7,583 nucleotides of DNA from DRGV01 sp018903055 [NCBI: bacterium] (GTDB lineage: Bacteria; UBP18; UBA7526), in NCBI GenBank assembly GCA_018903055.1, contig JAHIPW010000100.1, forward strand, positions 1-7,583. The letters run 5' to 3'. Below the pieces are notes generated by a model. It was not told where the DNA came from. It made no database searches and was given only the letters and a program-made list of their open reading frames with translations. A program made the position numbers and the translations under genes. This document shows positions 2,803 through 7,583 of the stretch, one piece after another (positions within the stretch are counted from its first letter, which is position 1; each line of letters begins with the position of its first letter).

Positions 2803-2807
2803 CCATT

Positions 2808-2812
2808 CCTCT
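2808..2812 (-). promoter_or_regulatory. Ribosome binding site of radical SAM gene B
   Basis: On the minus strand AGAGG lies 5 nt before the ATG at 2802. It supports this start and shows that the gene can be initiated independently, although the preceding gene ends only 50 bp upstream. The site lies just outside the octamer repeat array. Confidence 0.6.
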
Positions 2813-2827
2813 TTTCAGGTGGAATTA

Positions 2828-2930
2828 GTTGATGCGTTGATGCGTTGGACCGTTAAACCCGTTGACCCGTTAAACCCGTTTTTATTCTTTCCGGGCTAAC
2901 CGACGTAACGGGCAAAACGGGCTTAACGTC
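2828..2930. repeat. Octamer-type tandem array with inverted half, over a stop codon
   Basis: Plus-strand units from 2828 to 2880 are GTTGATGC, GTTGATGC, GTTGGACC, GTTAAACCC, GTTGACCC, GTTAAACCC, then GTT, so the period is 8 with occasional 9. After a short T-rich break, the same core appears inverted (AACGGGC at 2907-2913, AAAACGGGC at 2914-2922, TTAACG to 2928), so the two halves could pair. The stop codon of the FAD oxidoreductase gene (2853-2855) lies inside the array, and the last roughly 29 residues of that protein are encoded by the repeat-rich sequence. Confidence 0.85.
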
Positions 2931-4457
2931 TTTCGCATTTCGCTTTTTTAAGATGGCTTGAGCGGCAAACTGGCCAGACATAGCCACTCCCACTATTCCA
3001 TGCGCTGGTCGGGTATAGTGGCCCGCTAAATAGAGACCTTTTATTGGTGTCCTTTGACTTACCCTATTGATTCCAAACTGCTCTGGGGTCACCTGTAATC
3101 CATACATCGCCCCTTCGGTATTTAGGGTATACTTTTCTAAGGTCCGGGGGGTAGAAATATCCTGATAGATAATGTGTGAGGAAAGATTGGGGATTGCTTT
3201 CTCCACCTGTTTAATAATTTCCTTGGCCACTTCTTCTTTCTTATTCTCCCAGTCATAATGATAGGGAGCAGGAACGACGATGCTTAAGATATGTTTCCCC
3301 TCTGGAGCCAGGGTGGAATCTACCAGAGATGGAACGGTAATGATGAGGCTCGATTCATCTGGCATCTGGTCATTATTTAATGCTTCAAACTCCTTCTCTA
3401 AATCGGGAGGAAGAATAGCATTAGTAAAACCTAACCCCAAAGACTTCAGGTCTAAGTCCGTTGCTATATGAAGAATAAGACCGGATAAAGAAACCTTTTG
3501 GGTTTCTATTTTTTTAATATACTTCTGAGATAGATATTCTTTCCCCACTAATTTATTAAAGGTCTGCTCTAAATTAGTGTTGGAAACAACGTATCTCGCT
3601 CTTATTCTCTTACCACTGGCTAACTCAACCCCAAAGACCTTTCTTTTTTCCACTAAGATTTTAGTCACTGACGTTTCGAGTAATAGTTCTCCTTTATGTT
3701 TCTTTAATCCTTTTACTAAAGTATCGCTGAAAGTCTGAATTCCTCCTTTAGGATAGTAGAAGCCTTCCTGGCCCTGGATGGTCACTATAGCCATGAAGAA
3801 TAAGGAGATTCGGGAAGGGGGTAGAGTGGTGGGGGCAATGGAAAGGATATTCTTTAGTTTGGAATTAGTAAAGTATCTATCGAGTAAATCCTTCAGAGTG
3901 CTCTTCTGATATCTTATGAGATGGGGATATCTTATGGGAAAGAGAAGGAACTTAAAGAACGACGGAGAGACAAGGTCTAAAATCTCTTGAGTAATCTTTC
4001 TTAAAGTCTGAAAATACTTTGGTATCTGAGAAGTTTCTTGGGGAAAGATTCTTTGAAGCGTCTTTTCTAACTCAGGAGGCTTTTTAACCGGAAGGGATAT
4101 TTTTTCGTCATTCAGGATTACTCCCATAGGAGCTTGGACTTCAATGAATTTTATCTCTTCTTCCACCTCTAACTTTTGAAGAAGTTTTCTAATTATTCCT
4201 TCTTTACCACAGCCACCTAAAAAGTGAACGCAGGAATCAAAAGTAAAACCATCCTTTCGGTAAGAAGTAGCATACCCTCCCGGCTTTGAAGCCTGTTCCA
4301 CAACTAGAACTTTCAAGTCTTCTTTGGCTAACAAAGAAGCGCAGGTCAGTCCCCCGATTCCTGCGCCGATTACAATGACATCATAACTGGATTCTGGATC
4401 CTGGATCCTGGATCCTGGATACTGGATATCTCGATATCTATTCTCTCTTTTCTGCAT
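2853..4457 (-). CDS. CrtI/CrtISO-like FAD-dependent oxidoreductase
   Basis: This 534-residue protein belongs to the phytoene desaturase / carotenoid isomerase / retinol saturase superfamily. The FAD-binding Rossmann motif YDVIVIGAGIGGLTCASLL has GAGIGG at 31-36, with the ribose-binding acidic E54 and KPGGYATSYRKDGFTFD at about 58-74. The C-terminal FAD motif GLYLAGHYTRPAHGIVGVAM starts at 474. Members desaturate, isomerise or saturate long conjugated or isoprenoid chains; the exact substrate is unknown. Two oddities: residues about 11-24 (IQYPGSR then IQDPESS) are encoded by six tandem heptamers inserted between the start codon and the first beta strand, and residues about 506-534 are a basic tail made from another repeat array. 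Family proteins normally begin only a few residues before the DVIVIGAG strand. The ATG lies 3 nt after the thioesterase stop (TGA CCA ATG), so coupling is likely; no other in-frame start precedes the Rossmann motif. Confidence 0.93.
   Translation of the reverse strand: MQKRENRYRDIQYPGSRIQDPESSYDVIVIGAGIGGLTCASLLAKEDLKVLVVEQASKPGGYATSYRKDGFTFDSCVHFLGGCGKEGIIRKLLQKLEVEEEIKFIEVQAPMGVILNDEKISLPVKKPPELEKTLQRIFPQETSQIPKYFQTLRKITQEILDLVSPSFFKFLLFPIRYPHLIRYQKSTLKDLLDRYFTNSKLKNILSIAPTTLPPSRISLFFMAIVTIQGQEGFYYPKGGIQTFSDTLVKGLKKHKGELLLETSVTKILVEKRKVFGVELASGKRIRARYVVSNTNLEQTFNKLVGKEYLSQKYIKKIETQKVSLSGLILHIATDLDLKSLGLGFTNAILPPDLEKEFEALNNDQMPDESSLIITVPSLVDSTLAPEGKHILSIVVPAPYHYDWENKKEEVAKEIIKQVEKAIPNLSSHIIYQDISTPRTLEKYTLNTEGAMYGLQVTPEQFGINRVSQRTPIKGLYLAGHYTRPAHGIVGVAMSGQFAAQAILKKRNAKDVKPVLPVTSVSPERIKTGLTGQRV
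4387..4428. repeat. Perfect heptamer array inside the FAD oxidoreductase gene
   Basis: Six contiguous 7-bp units CTGGATN (plus strand) start at 4387, 4394, 4401, 4408, 4415 and 4422. Their 42 bp equal 14 codons, and because 3 units make 21 bp they encode two cycles of a heptapeptide, IQYPGSR and IQDPESS. The array preserves the frame and sits between the start codon and the first beta strand of the FAD domain. Confidence 0.93.
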
Positions 4458-6145: not shown

Positions 6146-6150
6146 TTAAT

Positions 6151-6157
6151 CTCCTTT
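6151..6157 (-). promoter_or_regulatory. Strong ribosome binding site of radical SAM gene A
   Basis: On the minus strand AAAGGAG lies 5 nt before the ATG at 6145. It is the best Shine-Dalgarno in the window and fixes the start. It also makes an alternative minus-strand frame reading through this point from the repeat region unlikely to be a gene. Confidence 0.85.
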
Positions 6158-6169
6158 TTCTAATAAAAT

Positions 6170-6204
6170 GTCCAAAGTCCAAAGTCCAATGTCCAAAGTC
6201 CAAA
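6170..6204. repeat. Heptamer array GTCCAAW x5
   Basis: Five plus-strand units of GTCCAA plus A or T begin at 6170, 6177, 6184, 6191 and 6198, exactly 7 bp apart. The array sits 25 bp upstream of the radical SAM gene A start, adjacent to its ribosome binding site. Confidence 0.93.
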
Positions 6205-6258
6205 TGGTGTAAGTAAGGGAAAAGGGGGAAATCACAAATCCCAAGCAACATACTTAAA

Positions 6259-6279
6259 ACCCGAAATCCGAAATCCGAA
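6259..6279. repeat. Heptamer array AYCCGAA x3
   Basis: Units ACCCGAA (6259-6265), ATCCGAA (6266-6272) and ATCCGAA (6273-6279) are contiguous and exactly 7 bp long. An A run follows at 6278-6283, which reads as T6 on the transcribed minus strand. Confidence 0.85.
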
Positions 6280-6336
6280 AAAATGTCTCAATGACTCAAT
6301 GCCTAAAAATTCTTTTGTTTGGGCATTTGGACATTT
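6278..6336 (-). terminator. Possible intrinsic terminator of the flavodoxin/ferredoxin gene
   Basis: On the minus strand AAATGTC (6336-6330) and AATGCC (6327-6322) can pair with GGCATT (6303-6298) and GACATTT (6287-6281), and six T residues end the structure at 6283-6278. The stem is broken by an asymmetric internal loop and is AT-rich, so it is weak. It lies about 80 nt after the stop at 6418. The pairing may simply be a by-product of the two octamer arrays it is built from. Confidence 0.3.
6284..6307. repeat. Octamer array TGNCTMAA x3
   Basis: Units TGTCTCAA (6284-6291), TGACTCAA (6292-6299) and TGCCTAAA (6300-6307) follow each other without gaps. The sequence is unrelated to the neighbouring heptamer arrays. 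Confidence 0.75.
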
Positions 6337-6349
6337 GATCATTGGGCAT
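6319..6349. repeat. Octamer array TTGGRCAT-like x3 plus a heptamer
   Basis: Units TTGGGCAT (6319-6326), TTGGACAT (6327-6334), TTGATCAT (6335-6342) and the shortened TGGGCAT (6343-6349) are contiguous. They can pair partly with the TGNCTMAA array to form the weak hairpin listed separately. Confidence 0.75.
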
Positions 6350-6403
6350 TGATTCGTCATTCTGGTTTCGGGCTTCGTCATTTGCTTGCTTTCCCACCTG
6401 CAC

Positions 6404-6427
6404 ACTTTCCCACTTTCTCACTTTCCC
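6404..6427. repeat. Octamer array ACTTTCYC x3 over a stop codon
   Basis: Units ACTTTCCC (6404-6411), ACTTTCTC (6412-6419) and ACTTTCCC (6420-6427) are exact octamers. The stop codon of the flavodoxin/ferredoxin gene (6418-6420) lies at the junction of the second and third units, so the last two codons and the stop are repeat sequence. Confidence 0.85.
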
Positions 6428-7329
6428 GTTTTCTTTATCAGTACCCTCATCGGCCAAGCACATATTCTAAAGAAACCTAAGAGCCCCTTGGTTGGTCTCC
6501 AGTTTACAATGATTGCTCCCTGAGGACATATCTTCTCGCAATAATAGCATCTAATACAGTTTTCCTTACGTATAGGATAAGGATTGAGCTCGATTACTAC
6601 CGACGGGCATATCTCAGCACATTTGCCACATTTAATGCATTTCTCTTCATCTACTTCTATTTTTGGTAGGTGTTTATTTACTCTCTTCTTCGTCAACCAT
6701 AGAGAGGCGAGATGCAAAAGTGAAAATTTGAACCTGAATTCCGGGAAGATATCCAATCGGTTCGTTTCTTTAACTAATCCATAGTTCTTGACCATCTTTT
6801 GGCCAAACTCTTCTGCTTCTTTTAGGTCCTTTTCATCTGGATGGCCCTTGCTATAATCAAACTCCATATAAGGCTGAAAAGAGTCATAACCCCTGGTACT
6901 TAATCCCCCTAAAACTAACAAACCTCTTTCCTTCAGTCCTTTCGTCATGCGGGCTAAAGTATTAGCATCCTGACCACCATGGGTACAGAAAACAAAACTC
7001 AACTTATCTTTTAAGAAAGAGAGTCTCTCGATAAAATCCCTTACATTCCAGGGCTCCTGGAAGTAGAAGACCGGGGTGCCGATACCAATCAAATCATAAT
7101 TTCTTAATTCCTCTATTTTTATTTCTTGTGCGGGTGACTCGGCGGATCTCTGTGAGTGGGAGGATCTACACCGGGCGGAGGGGCCCGCGAACAGAGAATG
7201 CCGAGGCAGGACCCGCTTTAAGGGAATTAGGATACAGGGATTATCTGTGTTTTCTATTCCCTTGGCAATAGCCCGGGCTACCTTCTCTGTATTCCCTGTC
7301 TGGGAAAAATAAACAATTACTGCCTTCAA
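6418..7329 (-). CDS. Flavodoxin-fold / 2x[4Fe-4S] ferredoxin fusion (EFR1-like), with in-frame insert
   Basis: Numbering is from a TTG at 7329, giving 303 residues. The N-terminal flavodoxin-like domain opens with KAVIVYFSQTGNTEKVA; SQTGNT (9-14) is the FMN phosphate loop, and DLIGIGTPVFY (about 79-89) and CTHGGQ (115-120) are later FMN-contact regions. Residues 226-275 hold two ferredoxin [4Fe-4S] motifs: C231, C234, C237, C241 and C258, C261, C264, C268, each in CxxCxxCxxxCP spacing. This is the EFR1-type domain order, expected to shuttle electrons in the cytoplasm. Residues about 39-67 are an insert of 29 codons (GC-rich, Ser/Arg-rich) placed where the family has only a short loop after the second strand; the rest of the frame is intact. 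The start is non-AUG: TTG 7329 has GGAG 8 nt upstream, while a TTG at 7347 would add six residues with a poorer site. It could supply electrons to the neighbouring radical SAM enzymes (inference). Confidence 0.92.
   Translation of the reverse strand: MKAVIVYFSQTGNTEKVARAIAKGIENTDNPCILIPLKRVLPRHSLFAGPSARCRSSHSQRSAESPAQEIKIEELRNYDLIGIGTPVFYFQEPWNVRDFIERLSFLKDKLSFVFCTHGGQDANTLARMTKGLKERGLLVLGGLSTRGYDSFQPYMEFDYSKGHPDEKDLKEAEEFGQKMVKNYGLVKETNRLDIFPEFRFKFSLLHLASLWLTKKRVNKHLPKIEVDEEKCIKCGKCAEICPSVVIELNPYPIRKENCIRCYYCEKICPQGAIIVNWRPTKGLLGFFRICAWPMRVLIKKTGK
7130..7216. mobile_element. 87-bp palindromic GC-rich element inserted in frame
   Basis: The element is bounded by GCGGGT (7130-7135) and its complement ACCCGC (7211-7216). 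Further inward the arms share CTCGGC with GCCGAG and TCTCTGT with ACAGAGA, interrupted by small mismatched loops. The centre has a second hairpin, CGGGC (7172-7176) with GCCCG (7183-7187). By hand count about 60 of 87 bases are G or C, far above the flanking gene. Its length is exactly 29 codons, so it keeps the frame of the flavodoxin/ferredoxin gene and adds residues about 39-67. It encodes no protein of its own. The pattern resembles in-gene palindromic elements such as the Rickettsia RPE family in concept; no target duplication could be defined. Confidence 0.6.
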
Positions 7330-7337
7330 ATTCAAAA

Positions 7338-7341
7338 CTCC
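7338..7341 (-). promoter_or_regulatory. Ribosome binding site favouring the TTG start at 7329
   Basis: On the minus strand GGAG is followed by 8 nt and then the TTG at 7329, which begins the conserved KAVIVYFSQTGNT strand one residue later. This favours 7329 over the in-frame TTG codons at 7335 and 7347. Confidence 0.55.
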
Positions 7342-7381
7342 AAACAATATACCTAAAATCCGATGTTCACTTTCTGCTTTT

Positions 7382-7413
7382 CACCGTTTCCCCGTTTCCC
7401 TGATTCACCGTTT
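7382..7413. repeat. Octamer array CACCGTTT-like x4
   Basis: Four contiguous octamers: CACCGTTT (7382-7389), CCCCGTTT (7390-7397), CCCTGATT (7398-7405) and CACCGTTT (7406-7413). They lie in the spacer between the LolA-like gene and the flavodoxin/ferredoxin gene, beside the heptamer array at 7428-7476. Confidence 0.8.
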
Positions 7414-7427
7414 CTGCCTTTACCGTC

Positions 7428-7476
7428 ACCCGCAACCCGTTACCCGTCACCGATCACCGATCACCGATCACCGATT
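7428..7476. repeat. Heptamer array ACCCGTY to ACCGATC, seven units
   Basis: Units begin every 7 bp at 7428, 7435, 7442, 7449, 7456, 7463 and 7470. The first three are ACCCGCA, ACCCGTT and ACCCGTC; the next four are ACCGATC three times and ACCGATT. The unit sequence therefore drifts along the array while the period stays constant. An eighth unit would start at 7477 and run into the TAG stop of the LolA-like gene (7478-7480). Confidence 0.93.
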
Positions 7477-7477
7477 A

Positions 7478-7583
7478 CTATTTCAGGGGCTCCACTACCT
7501 CCACTCCTTTGGGAACCTCAAACTCAAACTCTGAATCTGGAATCTTAGTATTGACTTTAATGTTCTTAAACTCTATTAAAGTG
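7478..7583 (-). CDS. LolA-like outer-membrane lipoprotein carrier (C-terminal fragment)
   Basis: The frame is open from the right edge to a TAG at 7478-7480 and gives 34 residues, including IEFKNIKVNTKIPDSEFEF and then EVPKGVEVVEPLK. The pattern F-x-NI-x-VN, then IPDS-x-F-x-F, then P-x-GVEVVE is the usual last strand pair and C-terminus of LolA-type periplasmic proteins, which carry lipoproteins or other lipids from the inner to the outer membrane. Only the C-terminus is visible, so the assignment rests on a short match. It is the gene upstream of the flavodoxin/ferredoxin gene, same strand, separated by 148 bp of repeats. LolA-like genes also appear inside aryl-polyene-type lipid clusters, so this copy may be pathway-specific rather than the housekeeping carrier (inference). 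Confidence 0.65.
   Translation of the reverse strand, partial: TLIEFKNIKVNTKIPDSEFEFEVPKGVEVVEPLK

What the first reader, a model, noticed from the sequence alone, without database searches (positions are those of the whole stretch)
6170..7476. Tandem arrays with constant 7-8 bp period but unrelated unit sequences fill the spacers
At least eight separate arrays occur in this window (2828, 4387, 6170, 6259, 6284, 6319, 6404, 7382 and 7428). Units range from GTCCAAW, AYCCGAA and CTGGATN to ACTTTCYC and CACCGTTT. What is conserved is the period, not the sequence. In the array at 7428 the unit drifts from ACCCGTY to ACCGATC without losing phase. Ordinary dispersed repeat families conserve sequence, so this suggests a copying process that duplicates whatever 7-8 bp is present, such as slippage by a specific polymerase or repair of stalled ends. 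I know of similar-looking strings in candidate-phylum genomes, but of no described mechanism.
Basis: partly seen in the sequence, partly recalled or inferred. Interest (0 to 1): 0.8.

Follow-up and report, generated by a model that had tools for sequence, protein, structure and literature searches.

The report
Fixed-period short repeat arrays between genes
The DNA between this uncultured bacterium's genes is packed with short tandem repeats whose unit is almost always 7 or 8 letters long; this is a dense, fast-changing form of a known repeat type, often folded into imperfect hairpins, in a lineage in which no convincing genes for mismatch repair or for a hairpin-cutting enzyme subunit were found.

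Summary
The arrays are real: 9 of 9 listed are found; 6 pass a stricter scan that averages 0.035 in shuffles. In 281 kb of the same genome periods 7 and 8 give 53 and 17 arrays, periods 5, 6 and 9 give 0, 1 and 1. They avoid genes. 'Unrelated units' is half right: 63 heptamer arrays use 35 unit classes (60.1 expected), and G001, of the same genus, shares 14 of 37 (2.0 expected). At matched sites in relatives the array is usually absent or built on another unit.

New here: neighbouring arrays of one period are often reverse complements, arms of imperfect hairpins (30 of 77 pairs, 8.2 expected); one hairpin-plus-array cassette recurs at three loci; the family shows no credible MutS, MutL or SbcD in 6 of 6 genomes, with RecA in 6 of 6.

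The heptamer preference is already known, with polymerase slippage proposed (Mrazek 2007, as told in PMC4679880 and PMC4692102). I read this as a new variant of that kind: slippage and template switching on hairpins, then spread as cassettes. Why 7-8 bp stays open.

The parts
2828..2847 (.). 8-bp array GTTGATGC, 2.5 copies
2843..2880 (.). continuation in 8/9-bp units that each begin GTT (GTTGGACC, GTTAAACCC, GTTGACCC)
2906..2928 (.). opposite arm of the same hairpin (TAACGGGCA units)
2834..2943 (-). imperfect hairpin formed by the two arms above (window 2803-2950 folded: -53 kcal/mol, z -5.88, 0 of 200 shuffles as stable); overlaps the 3' end of the desaturase-like ORF
4387..4428 (.). 7-bp array CTGGATN, about 6 copies, inside the 5' end of the amine-oxidase/desaturase-type ORF; absent at the matched junction in G003
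6170..6204 (.). 7-bp array GTCCAAA, 5 copies
6257..6280 (.). 7-bp array AAATCCG, 3.4 copies
6282..6301 (.). 8-bp array AATGACTC, 2.5 copies
6318..6337 (.). 8-bp array TTTGGACA, 2.5 copies
6389..6427 (.). 8-bp array CTTTCCCA/CTTTCTCA, 4.9 copies; three tandem copies of the CACTTTCYC unit occur in 5 of 6 genomes of the family and in 0 of 284 others
6146..6417 (.). spacer A, about 270 bp, filled with arrays; about 300 bases that do not align between the flanking matches correspond to about 37 in G003, which shows no array there; folds as one long nested imperfect hairpin (z -1.93, 6 of 200 shuffles as stable)
7379..7414 (.). 8-bp array TTTCACCG, 4.5 copies
7423..7475 (.). 7-bp array drifting from ACCCGTY to ACCGATC in phase
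7130..7217 (.). separate palindromic GC-rich element inside the flavodoxin-ferredoxin ORF, in frame (94% identical to L067:1967-2054); not one of the arrays

Best explanation
The arrays belong to the known kind of long simple sequence repeats dominated by 7-bp units (heptanucleotide LSSRs, cyanobacterial STRRs), here at high density in a small-genome candidate-phylum lineage. Shown here: the 7/8 period, a limited set of units shared across the family, spacer bias, fast turnover at matched sites, inverted pairing of a good part of neighbouring arrays, and one recurring hairpin-plus-array cassette. Inferred: arrays are born and lengthened by replication slippage and by template switching on hairpin-forming spacer DNA, so that both arms carry related units; arrays with their flanking hairpins are then copied to other spacers, probably by recombination between imperfectly matching repeats. 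Also inferred: loss of MutS/MutL (which, from recall, hinder recombination between diverged repeats) and of SbcCD (which, from recall, cuts long hairpins) lets this persist. What fixes the unit at 7-8 bp is not explained; the published guess is the stretch of DNA held by the polymerase.
For: Period. Unit set: 63 heptamer arrays in 35 classes versus 60.1 expected (minimum 54 in 1000 draws); G001 shares 14 of 37 heptamer and 14 of 29 octamer units (2.0 and 0.8 expected). Inverted pairs: 30 of 77 neighbouring same-period pairs, permutation mean 8.2, maximum 18, 0 of 500; a second test finds an inverted partner of 68% identity or more for 45 of 230 arrays, versus 20 direct, 17 complement, 4 reversed and 0 in shuffled flanks. 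Cassette: one hairpin of 23 nt with an AAAGTGAG unit before it and the array after it, the same 41 letters at three loci with different outer flanks (L024 twice, L054). 44% of spacer DNA (167 spacers of 40 bp or more) matches elsewhere in the same sample. Turnover: 93 comparisons from 65 of 236 arrays: 65 no array, 20 another unit, 8 the same unit. Repair genes: MutS 0 of 6 in the family versus 19 of 20 other genomes; MutL one 19-bit hit in 6 versus 18 of 20 over the cut-off; SbcD 0 of 6 versus 15 of 20 (5 over the cut-off); RecA 6 of 6, 5 over the cut-off. Of three other genomes with several CTGGAT matches, G188 and G181 have no MutS or SbcD match.
Against: The six genomes of the family share ancestry, so the gene losses may be one event and coincidental. 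G195 has MutS and the most CTGGAT matches (65). Xanthomonas carries heptamer arrays in inverted pairs although, from recall, it keeps both repair systems. From recall MutS acts on loops of up to about 4 nt, so its loss should favour units of 1-4 bp, which are nearly absent here. Octamer units hardly recur within the G000 sample (20 classes in 23 arrays, 22.9 expected, minimum 20), and none of 5 heptamer units of G004 is in the G000 list. Two dispersed hairpin families show almost no compensatory change (1 of 35 and 1 of 23 pairs). Near pairs do not share their period more than chance (77 versus 72.0, 417 of 2000 permutations), and 0 of 30 inverted pairs are perfectly complementary. Only 45 of 230 arrays have a clear inverted partner, and G188 shows no excess of them on average. 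G016 lacks MutS, MutL and SbcD matches but its only locus seen (4.2 kb) has no 7/8-bp array.
Confidence: 0.45

Rival explanations
1. Pure local slippage with a 7-nt polymerase ruler: each array is grown from sequence already present, and nothing moves between loci.
For: Sharp 7/8 period; published proposal for heptamers; arrays with different units at the same site in two genomes, for example in a tsaB-like gene (L057:9709 AAAGTCC versus L138:4336 TCAAGGG) without net change over the 202 residues compared; drift of units in phase.
Against: Shared heptamer set within and between genera; the same hairpin-plus-array cassette at three loci; the clean empty site at the thioesterase/desaturase junction holds no CTGGAT-like seed (one site only); excess of inverted pairs.
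Confidence: 0.25
2. The arrays are selected as binding sites for a DNA- or RNA-binding protein, for example translational or mRNA-stability control between genes of an operon.
For: 104 of 110 arrays in spacers of 20 bp or more lie between co-directional genes (1.75 per kb, versus 0.96 in convergent and 0.30 in divergent spacers); such a role was proposed for TAACTGA repeats in Beggiatoaceae (abstract); some form hairpins.
Against: Presence and unit are mostly not conserved at matched spacers; tens of different units; no fixed distance to the next start (quartiles 24 and 168 bp); 342 of 379 spacers are co-directional anyway.
Confidence: 0.12
3. They are REP-type palindromes moved by a RAYT transposase.
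For: Dispersed palindromic elements occupy many spacers.
Against: No Y1_Tnp match in 6 of 6 genomes of the family, versus 14 of 20 others; the arms are tandem arrays of 7-8 bp, unlike REPs of 20-40 bp (start of an abstract).
Confidence: 0.04
4. Assembly artefact.
For: Draft metagenome assemblies with many contigs.
Against: Some G000 units occur in each of the five other assemblies of the family; most arrays are only 20-60 bp, shorter than usual reads (inference); two control genomes and a Clostridiaceae locus treated alike show no 7/8-bp array.
Confidence: 0.01

Closest known systems
Long simple sequence repeats with 5-11 nt units, heptamers commonest (Mrazek, Guo and Shah 2007; known here only through PMC4679880 and PMC4692102)
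   Same: Tandem short units with a strong bias to 7, patchy across lineages; slippage proposed
   Different: Here 8-bp units and some 10-bp units are also common, heptamer units are shared across a family, neighbouring arrays often pair as hairpin arms, and no credible MutS, MutL or SbcD match was found in the lineage
Cyanobacterial short tandemly repeated repetitive sequences (STRR; Mazel 1990, seen only as a reference entry and a citing passage)
   Same: Several different heptamers in one genome
   Different: No cyanobacterial sequence was compared here, so unit sequences and pairing are untested
TAACTGA direct repeats of Beggiatoaceae, Cyanobacteria and Bacteroidetes (PMC4679880; abstract and two sections read)
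   Same: Intergenic heptamers, present or absent at the same spacer in relatives; horizontal spread suspected without a mechanism
   Different: One dominant unit close to start codons there; many units without a fixed distance here
GGGAATC repeats of Xanthomonas (PMC4692102; passages read)
   Same: Heptamers, with many inverted pairs in close proximity (70 and 75 cases in two strains)
   Different: A single G-quadruplex-forming unit there; mixed units, never perfectly complementary between arms (0 of 30), here
REP/BIME elements
   Same: Dispersed intergenic palindromes
   Different: No Y1_Tnp match; tandem-array arms

Membership tests
Long simple sequence repeats / STRR (heptamer type) | head-to-tail units of 5-11 nt, more than chance | tested here: met
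Long simple sequence repeats / STRR (heptamer type) | 7 nt the commonest unit length | tested here: met
   53 of 7 bp, 17 of 8 bp, 8 of 10 bp in 281,200 bp
Long simple sequence repeats / STRR (heptamer type) | mainly intergenic | tested here: met
   34 of 124 arrays mostly inside ORFs that cover 86.6%
Long simple sequence repeats / STRR (heptamer type) | unit number changes by slippage within a population | not testable with these tools
   no reads or strain series; only comparison between species and genera
REP/BIME with RAYT transposase | a Y1_Tnp (RAYT) gene in the genome | tested here: not met
   0 of 6 genomes of the family; assemblies 53-93% complete
REP/BIME with RAYT transposase | 20-40 bp palindrome with a terminal tag | not tested
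   no tag search was run
G-quadruplex heptamers of Xanthomonas/Nostoc (GGGNATC, GGGGAYT) | unit is a rotation of GGGNATC or GGGGAYT | tested here: not met
   by reading the 14 consensus units on both strands; none fits
CRISPR arrays | long constant repeats separated by unique spacers | tested here: not met
   direct head-to-tail 7-8 bp units without spacers
Structured RNA | match to a known family | tested here: not met
   cmscan of 4 sources at gathering scores: 5 tRNAs, all in L051, nothing in the window
Structured RNA | compensatory base changes in the hairpin | tested here: inconclusive
   1 of 35 and 1 of 23 pairs; few copies, little divergence, and only two dispersed element families rather than the 7/8-bp arrays

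The most novel reading that the evidence does not exclude
In a bacterial lineage without MutS, MutL and SbcCD, spacer DNA has become a population of self-copying imperfect hairpins: a folded single strand primes on its own opposite arm one unit out of register, so both arms grow in steps of 7 or 8 bases as related inverted arrays, and the hairpins then spread to new spacers by recombination between imperfect matches. The constant step would be the shortest duplex that can prime, not the footprint of a polymerase, and the mismatches found between all paired arms would be what keeps the hairpins viable.
Probability: 0.15. Interest if true: 0.8.

Novelty: new variant of a known kind. Interest (0 to 1): 0.52.

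Why it matters
Why bacterial simple repeats prefer a 7-bp unit has been open since it was noted in 2007 (as cited). This family offers a dense natural case, with related genomes in which single spacers can be compared empty and filled, and with two candidate enabling losses (mismatch repair, a hairpin nuclease) that can be tested in laboratory strains. It also shows spacers being rewritten while neighbouring genes stay alignable at roughly 65-93% identity, with arrays running into gene ends and into at least one gene interior.

Tried and rejected
Tried without gain: coupling of periods between neighbouring arrays (77 same-period pairs versus 72.0 expected; no signal); covariation in two dispersed hairpin families (2 of the 13 T-family copies, both in L065 and carrying an inserted hairpin, were left out of the alignment); Rfam; purine share of arrays on the coding strand (mean 0.54 of 104; no clear trend). 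SbcC was a poor marker: matches at E 0.001 in 1 of 6 genomes of the family (16.7 bits) and 17 of 20 others, but none of 26 over the cut-off and many others weak. A first, gap-penalised test for inverted partners was weaker: the reverse complement scored best for 41 of 86 arrays in G000, 29 of 66 in G001, 7 of 12 in G004, 4 of 7 in G005 and 13 of 24 in G188, but direct copies scored best most often in G002 (4 of 6), G003 (7 of 17) and G195 (4 of 8). At a stricter 75% identity the second test gives 19 inverted, 12 direct, 10 complement, 2 reversed, 0 shuffled of 230. The fold z-score of spacers with 7/8-bp arrays (median -2.01, n 29) differs little from that of spacers without (median -1.5, n 69), some of which hold other hairpins; of the three window spacers folded only one is clearly more stable than shuffles.

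Rejected: that all units descend from one sequence (35 classes among 63 arrays). Outside the family the unit sets differ: with the CTGGAT variants used to pick those genomes removed, 0 of 17 heptamer units of G188 and 0 of 6 of G195 are in the G000 list (one of those six, and the single unit left for G181, are themselves CTGGATA units that my filter missed), and 0 of 9 octamer units of the three.

In print: two searches aimed at this lineage type or at a link with MutS/MutL found no paper, and one listed nothing that names UBP18 (8 of 153 listed). This does not show absence from the literature outside that library.
Full report
Observation. The window is contig C89 of a 1.085-Mb draft genome in 191 contigs; its nearest named relative found in genome contigs is bacterium UBP18_UBA7526 (81% over most of one protein). 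The seven ORFs taken as genes all run on the minus strand: three B12-binding radical SAM proteins, a 109-aa ORF without a Pfam match, a flavin amine-oxidase-type (desaturase-like, my reading) protein, a thioesterase and a flavodoxin-ferredoxin protein. With a stricter lag scan 6 are called period 7 or 8, against a mean of 0.035 (maximum 1) in 200 shuffles.

Period in the genome. In 365,178 bp of the same genome (61 contigs including the window, 9 of them chosen for a CTGGAT array) exact-run counts are 0 at lag 5, 2 at 6, 50 at 7, 19 at 8, 3 at 9 and 1 at 10, with multiples at 14, 16, 21 and 24; the shuffled sequence gives 0 at all of these. A tolerant scan over periods 4-12 gives 96 arrays of 7 bp, 32 of 8, 13 of 10, 2 of 9, 1 of 6 and 0 of 5, and none in shuffled sequence. 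In the 51 contigs not chosen for an array (281,200 bp, periods 3-30) the counts are 53, 17, 8, 1, 1 and 0. Numbers of 7- plus 8-bp arrays in the related genomes: G001 54 in 178 kb, G002 6 in 78 kb, G003 13 in 85 kb, G004 11 in 51 kb, G005 7 in 39 kb; shuffles gave one 8-bp array in G001 and one in G004. Two control genomes (40 kb each) and a Clostridiaceae locus (21 kb) hold no 7- or 8-bp array.

Place. In G000 34 of 124 arrays (periods 7, 8, 10 and their multiples or composites) lie mostly inside ORFs of 90 aa or more, which cover 86.6% of the sample. Pooled over the six genomes, 104 of 110 spacer arrays lie between co-directional genes (342 of 379 spacers are of that type); spacers with an array have a median of 187 bp, those without 116 bp.

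Units. The 63 heptamer arrays of the G000 sample (window included, chosen contigs excluded) use 35 rotation/strand classes; random draws from its own spacer heptamers would give 60.1 (minimum 54 of 1000). The 23 octamer arrays use 20 classes, which is near chance (22.9, minimum 20). Of the heptamer arrays in G001 14 of 37 use a unit in the G000 list (2.0 expected), in G002 4 of 5, G003 3 of 11, G004 0 of 5, G005 2 of 4 (0.2-0.5 expected); of the octamer arrays in G001 14 of 29 (0.8 expected), G002 0 of 1, G003 3 of 6, G004 3 of 7, G005 1 of 3. Part of this sharing may be inheritance at the same sites; where matched sites could be compared between G000 and G001, 1 of 9 G000 arrays had the same unit. 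Three tandem copies of CACTTTCYC occur in 5 of 6 genomes of the family and in 0 of 284 others; of CTGGATN in 5 of 6 and in 7 of 284 others, with the reversed pattern hitting 2 of 290. The three outside genomes with several CTGGATN matches (G188, G195, G181) carry further 7/8-bp arrays, but with their own unit sets.

Turnover. The reverse complement of the window is collinear in part with G003 contig C18, and that contig with G004, G005 and G002. Between flanking matches the window has about 300 bases where G003 has about 37 (spacer A), and the G003 stretch shows no array. At the thioesterase/desaturase junction G003 has genes that overlap by four bases and no CTGGAT-like sequence, while the window has about six copies inside the start of the desaturase ORF. 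Upstream of the radical SAM gene that starts at 2802 the window and G004 share the right flank ATCAACTAATTCCACCT but carry AACGCATC and AACTTATC units respectively; on the left side G003 and G004 have an extra gene, so only the right flank is comparable. Over all data in hand 65 of 236 arrays have a matched stretch in another genome: of 93 comparisons 65 show no array above threshold, 20 an array of another unit and 8 the same unit; pairs are counted from both sides. In a tsaB-like gene the same coding position holds an AAAGTCC array in G000 and a TCAAGGG array in G004, with no net length change over the 202 residues compared (the gene name is mine, recalled from its sequence).

Hairpins. The spacer at 2803-2950 folds as a strong imperfect hairpin (z -5.88, 0 of 200 shuffles); spacer A is weaker (z -1.93, 6 of 200) and 7345-7482 is not significant (z -0.97, 31 of 200). 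Other loci show the pattern by eye, for example L080:317-423, L043:1295-1381, L036:4775-4855 and L024:13862-14106. Tested formally over 335 arrays of the six genomes (chosen contigs included), 30 of 77 neighbouring same-period pairs are inverted complements within two mismatches per unit (permutation mean 8.2, maximum 18, 0 of 500), while direct pairs are near chance (12 versus 8.1, 50 of 500); none of the 30 is perfectly complementary, 9 have one and 21 two mismatches per unit, and 20 of 51 mismatches are A/T exchanges. About 8 of the 30 are expected by chance, so single pairs in that list prove nothing. A second test finds inverted partners of 68% identity or more for 45 of 230 arrays over nine genomes, versus 20 direct, 17 complement, 4 reversed and 0 in shuffled flanks. 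So a real but minority architecture.

Dispersal. 44% of spacer DNA in the G000 sample (167 spacers of 40 bp or more, chosen contigs included) matches elsewhere in the sample at E 0.001 or better; the strongest listed matches are largely copies of palindromic elements of about 100-200 bp, with at least one gene paralogue among them. One family built on GGTTAGGGTTAAGG has 13 copies in the loci in hand: 10 in G000, 2 in G001, 1 in G003; its consensus hairpin shows almost no compensatory change. A 41-base stretch made of one AAAGTGAG unit, a hairpin of 23 nt and the start of an AAAGTGRG array occurs at three loci with different outer flanks. This points to copying of cassettes, not only to local duplication, at least for this type.

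Repair genes. MutS-family matches are absent in 6 of 6 genomes of the family and present in 19 of 20 others (18 over the cut-off). MutL: one 19-bit hit in one of the 6, versus 18 of 20 others over the cut-off. SbcD: 0 of 6 versus 15 of 20 (5 over the cut-off). RecA is found in 6 of 6 (5 over the cut-off, one in two pieces), so incomplete assembly is an unlikely cause. Of seven outside genomes with a CTGGATN match, G188, G181 and G070 have no match to MutS or SbcD; G195, G153, G248 and G281 have MutS, and G195, G153 and G281 a weak SbcD match. MutL was not looked for in these seven. Y1_Tnp is absent in 6 of 6. The family is one clade and G016 shows the same absences without known arrays, so this is suggestive only.

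Comparison with what is known. Heptamers as the commonest category of long simple repeats in most genomes studied, and slippage over a 7-nt polymerase contact as the cause, are attributed to Mrazek et al. 2007 (PMC4679880: abstract, introduction and one results section read; PMC4692102: passages read; the original not held). Inverted pairs of heptamer arrays are reported in Xanthomonas, and repeat-filled spacers that are shorter and free of obvious repeats in close relatives are reported in Bacteroidetes. The searches that led to these two papers were made; one search listed papers that mention STRRs, none of which I read.

Verdict. A confirmed observation of a known kind, in a dense and structured variant with a testable genetic correlate. 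The origin of the 7-8 bp step stays open.

Noticed in passing
window 7130-7217: A palindromic GC-rich element (88 nt, -47 kcal/mol) lies in frame in the flavodoxin-ferredoxin ORF and adds about 30 residues compared with G003; a 94% identical copy lies at L067:1967-2054.
   Followed up: partly
L051:4398-4517, L024:1906-2023 and 13910-14028, L062:1795-1914 and others: A dispersed hairpin family of about 115 bp built on telomere-like GGTTAGGGTTAAGG words, 13 copies in the loci of G000, G001 and G003, two of them interrupted by another small hairpin.
   Followed up: partly
G000-G005: No MutS-family match, no credible MutL match and no SbcD match in any of six genomes of this family, although RecA is found in all six.
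   Followed up: partly
window 2853-4457 (minus strand): The desaturase-like ORF carries array-encoded extensions at both its N- and C-terminus compared with G003.
   Followed up: partly
L136, about 590-650: In G004 the spacer matching spacer A holds a CCCGCACCTTT...AAAGGTGCGGG hairpin with TTCA on both sides, which looks like a small insertion element with a 4-bp duplication.
   Followed up: no
L138:4336-4364 and L057:9709-9742: Two related genomes carry different 7-bp arrays at the same coding position of a tsaB-like gene without net change in length.
   Followed up: partly
L147 (G181): A 2.8-kb locus of an unrelated genome without MutS or SbcD matches holds five 7/8-bp arrays and one of 16 bp, among them, by eye, inverted GCTAATAG/CAATAGC and CCCTTTCT/AGGGAGAA stretches.
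   Followed up: no
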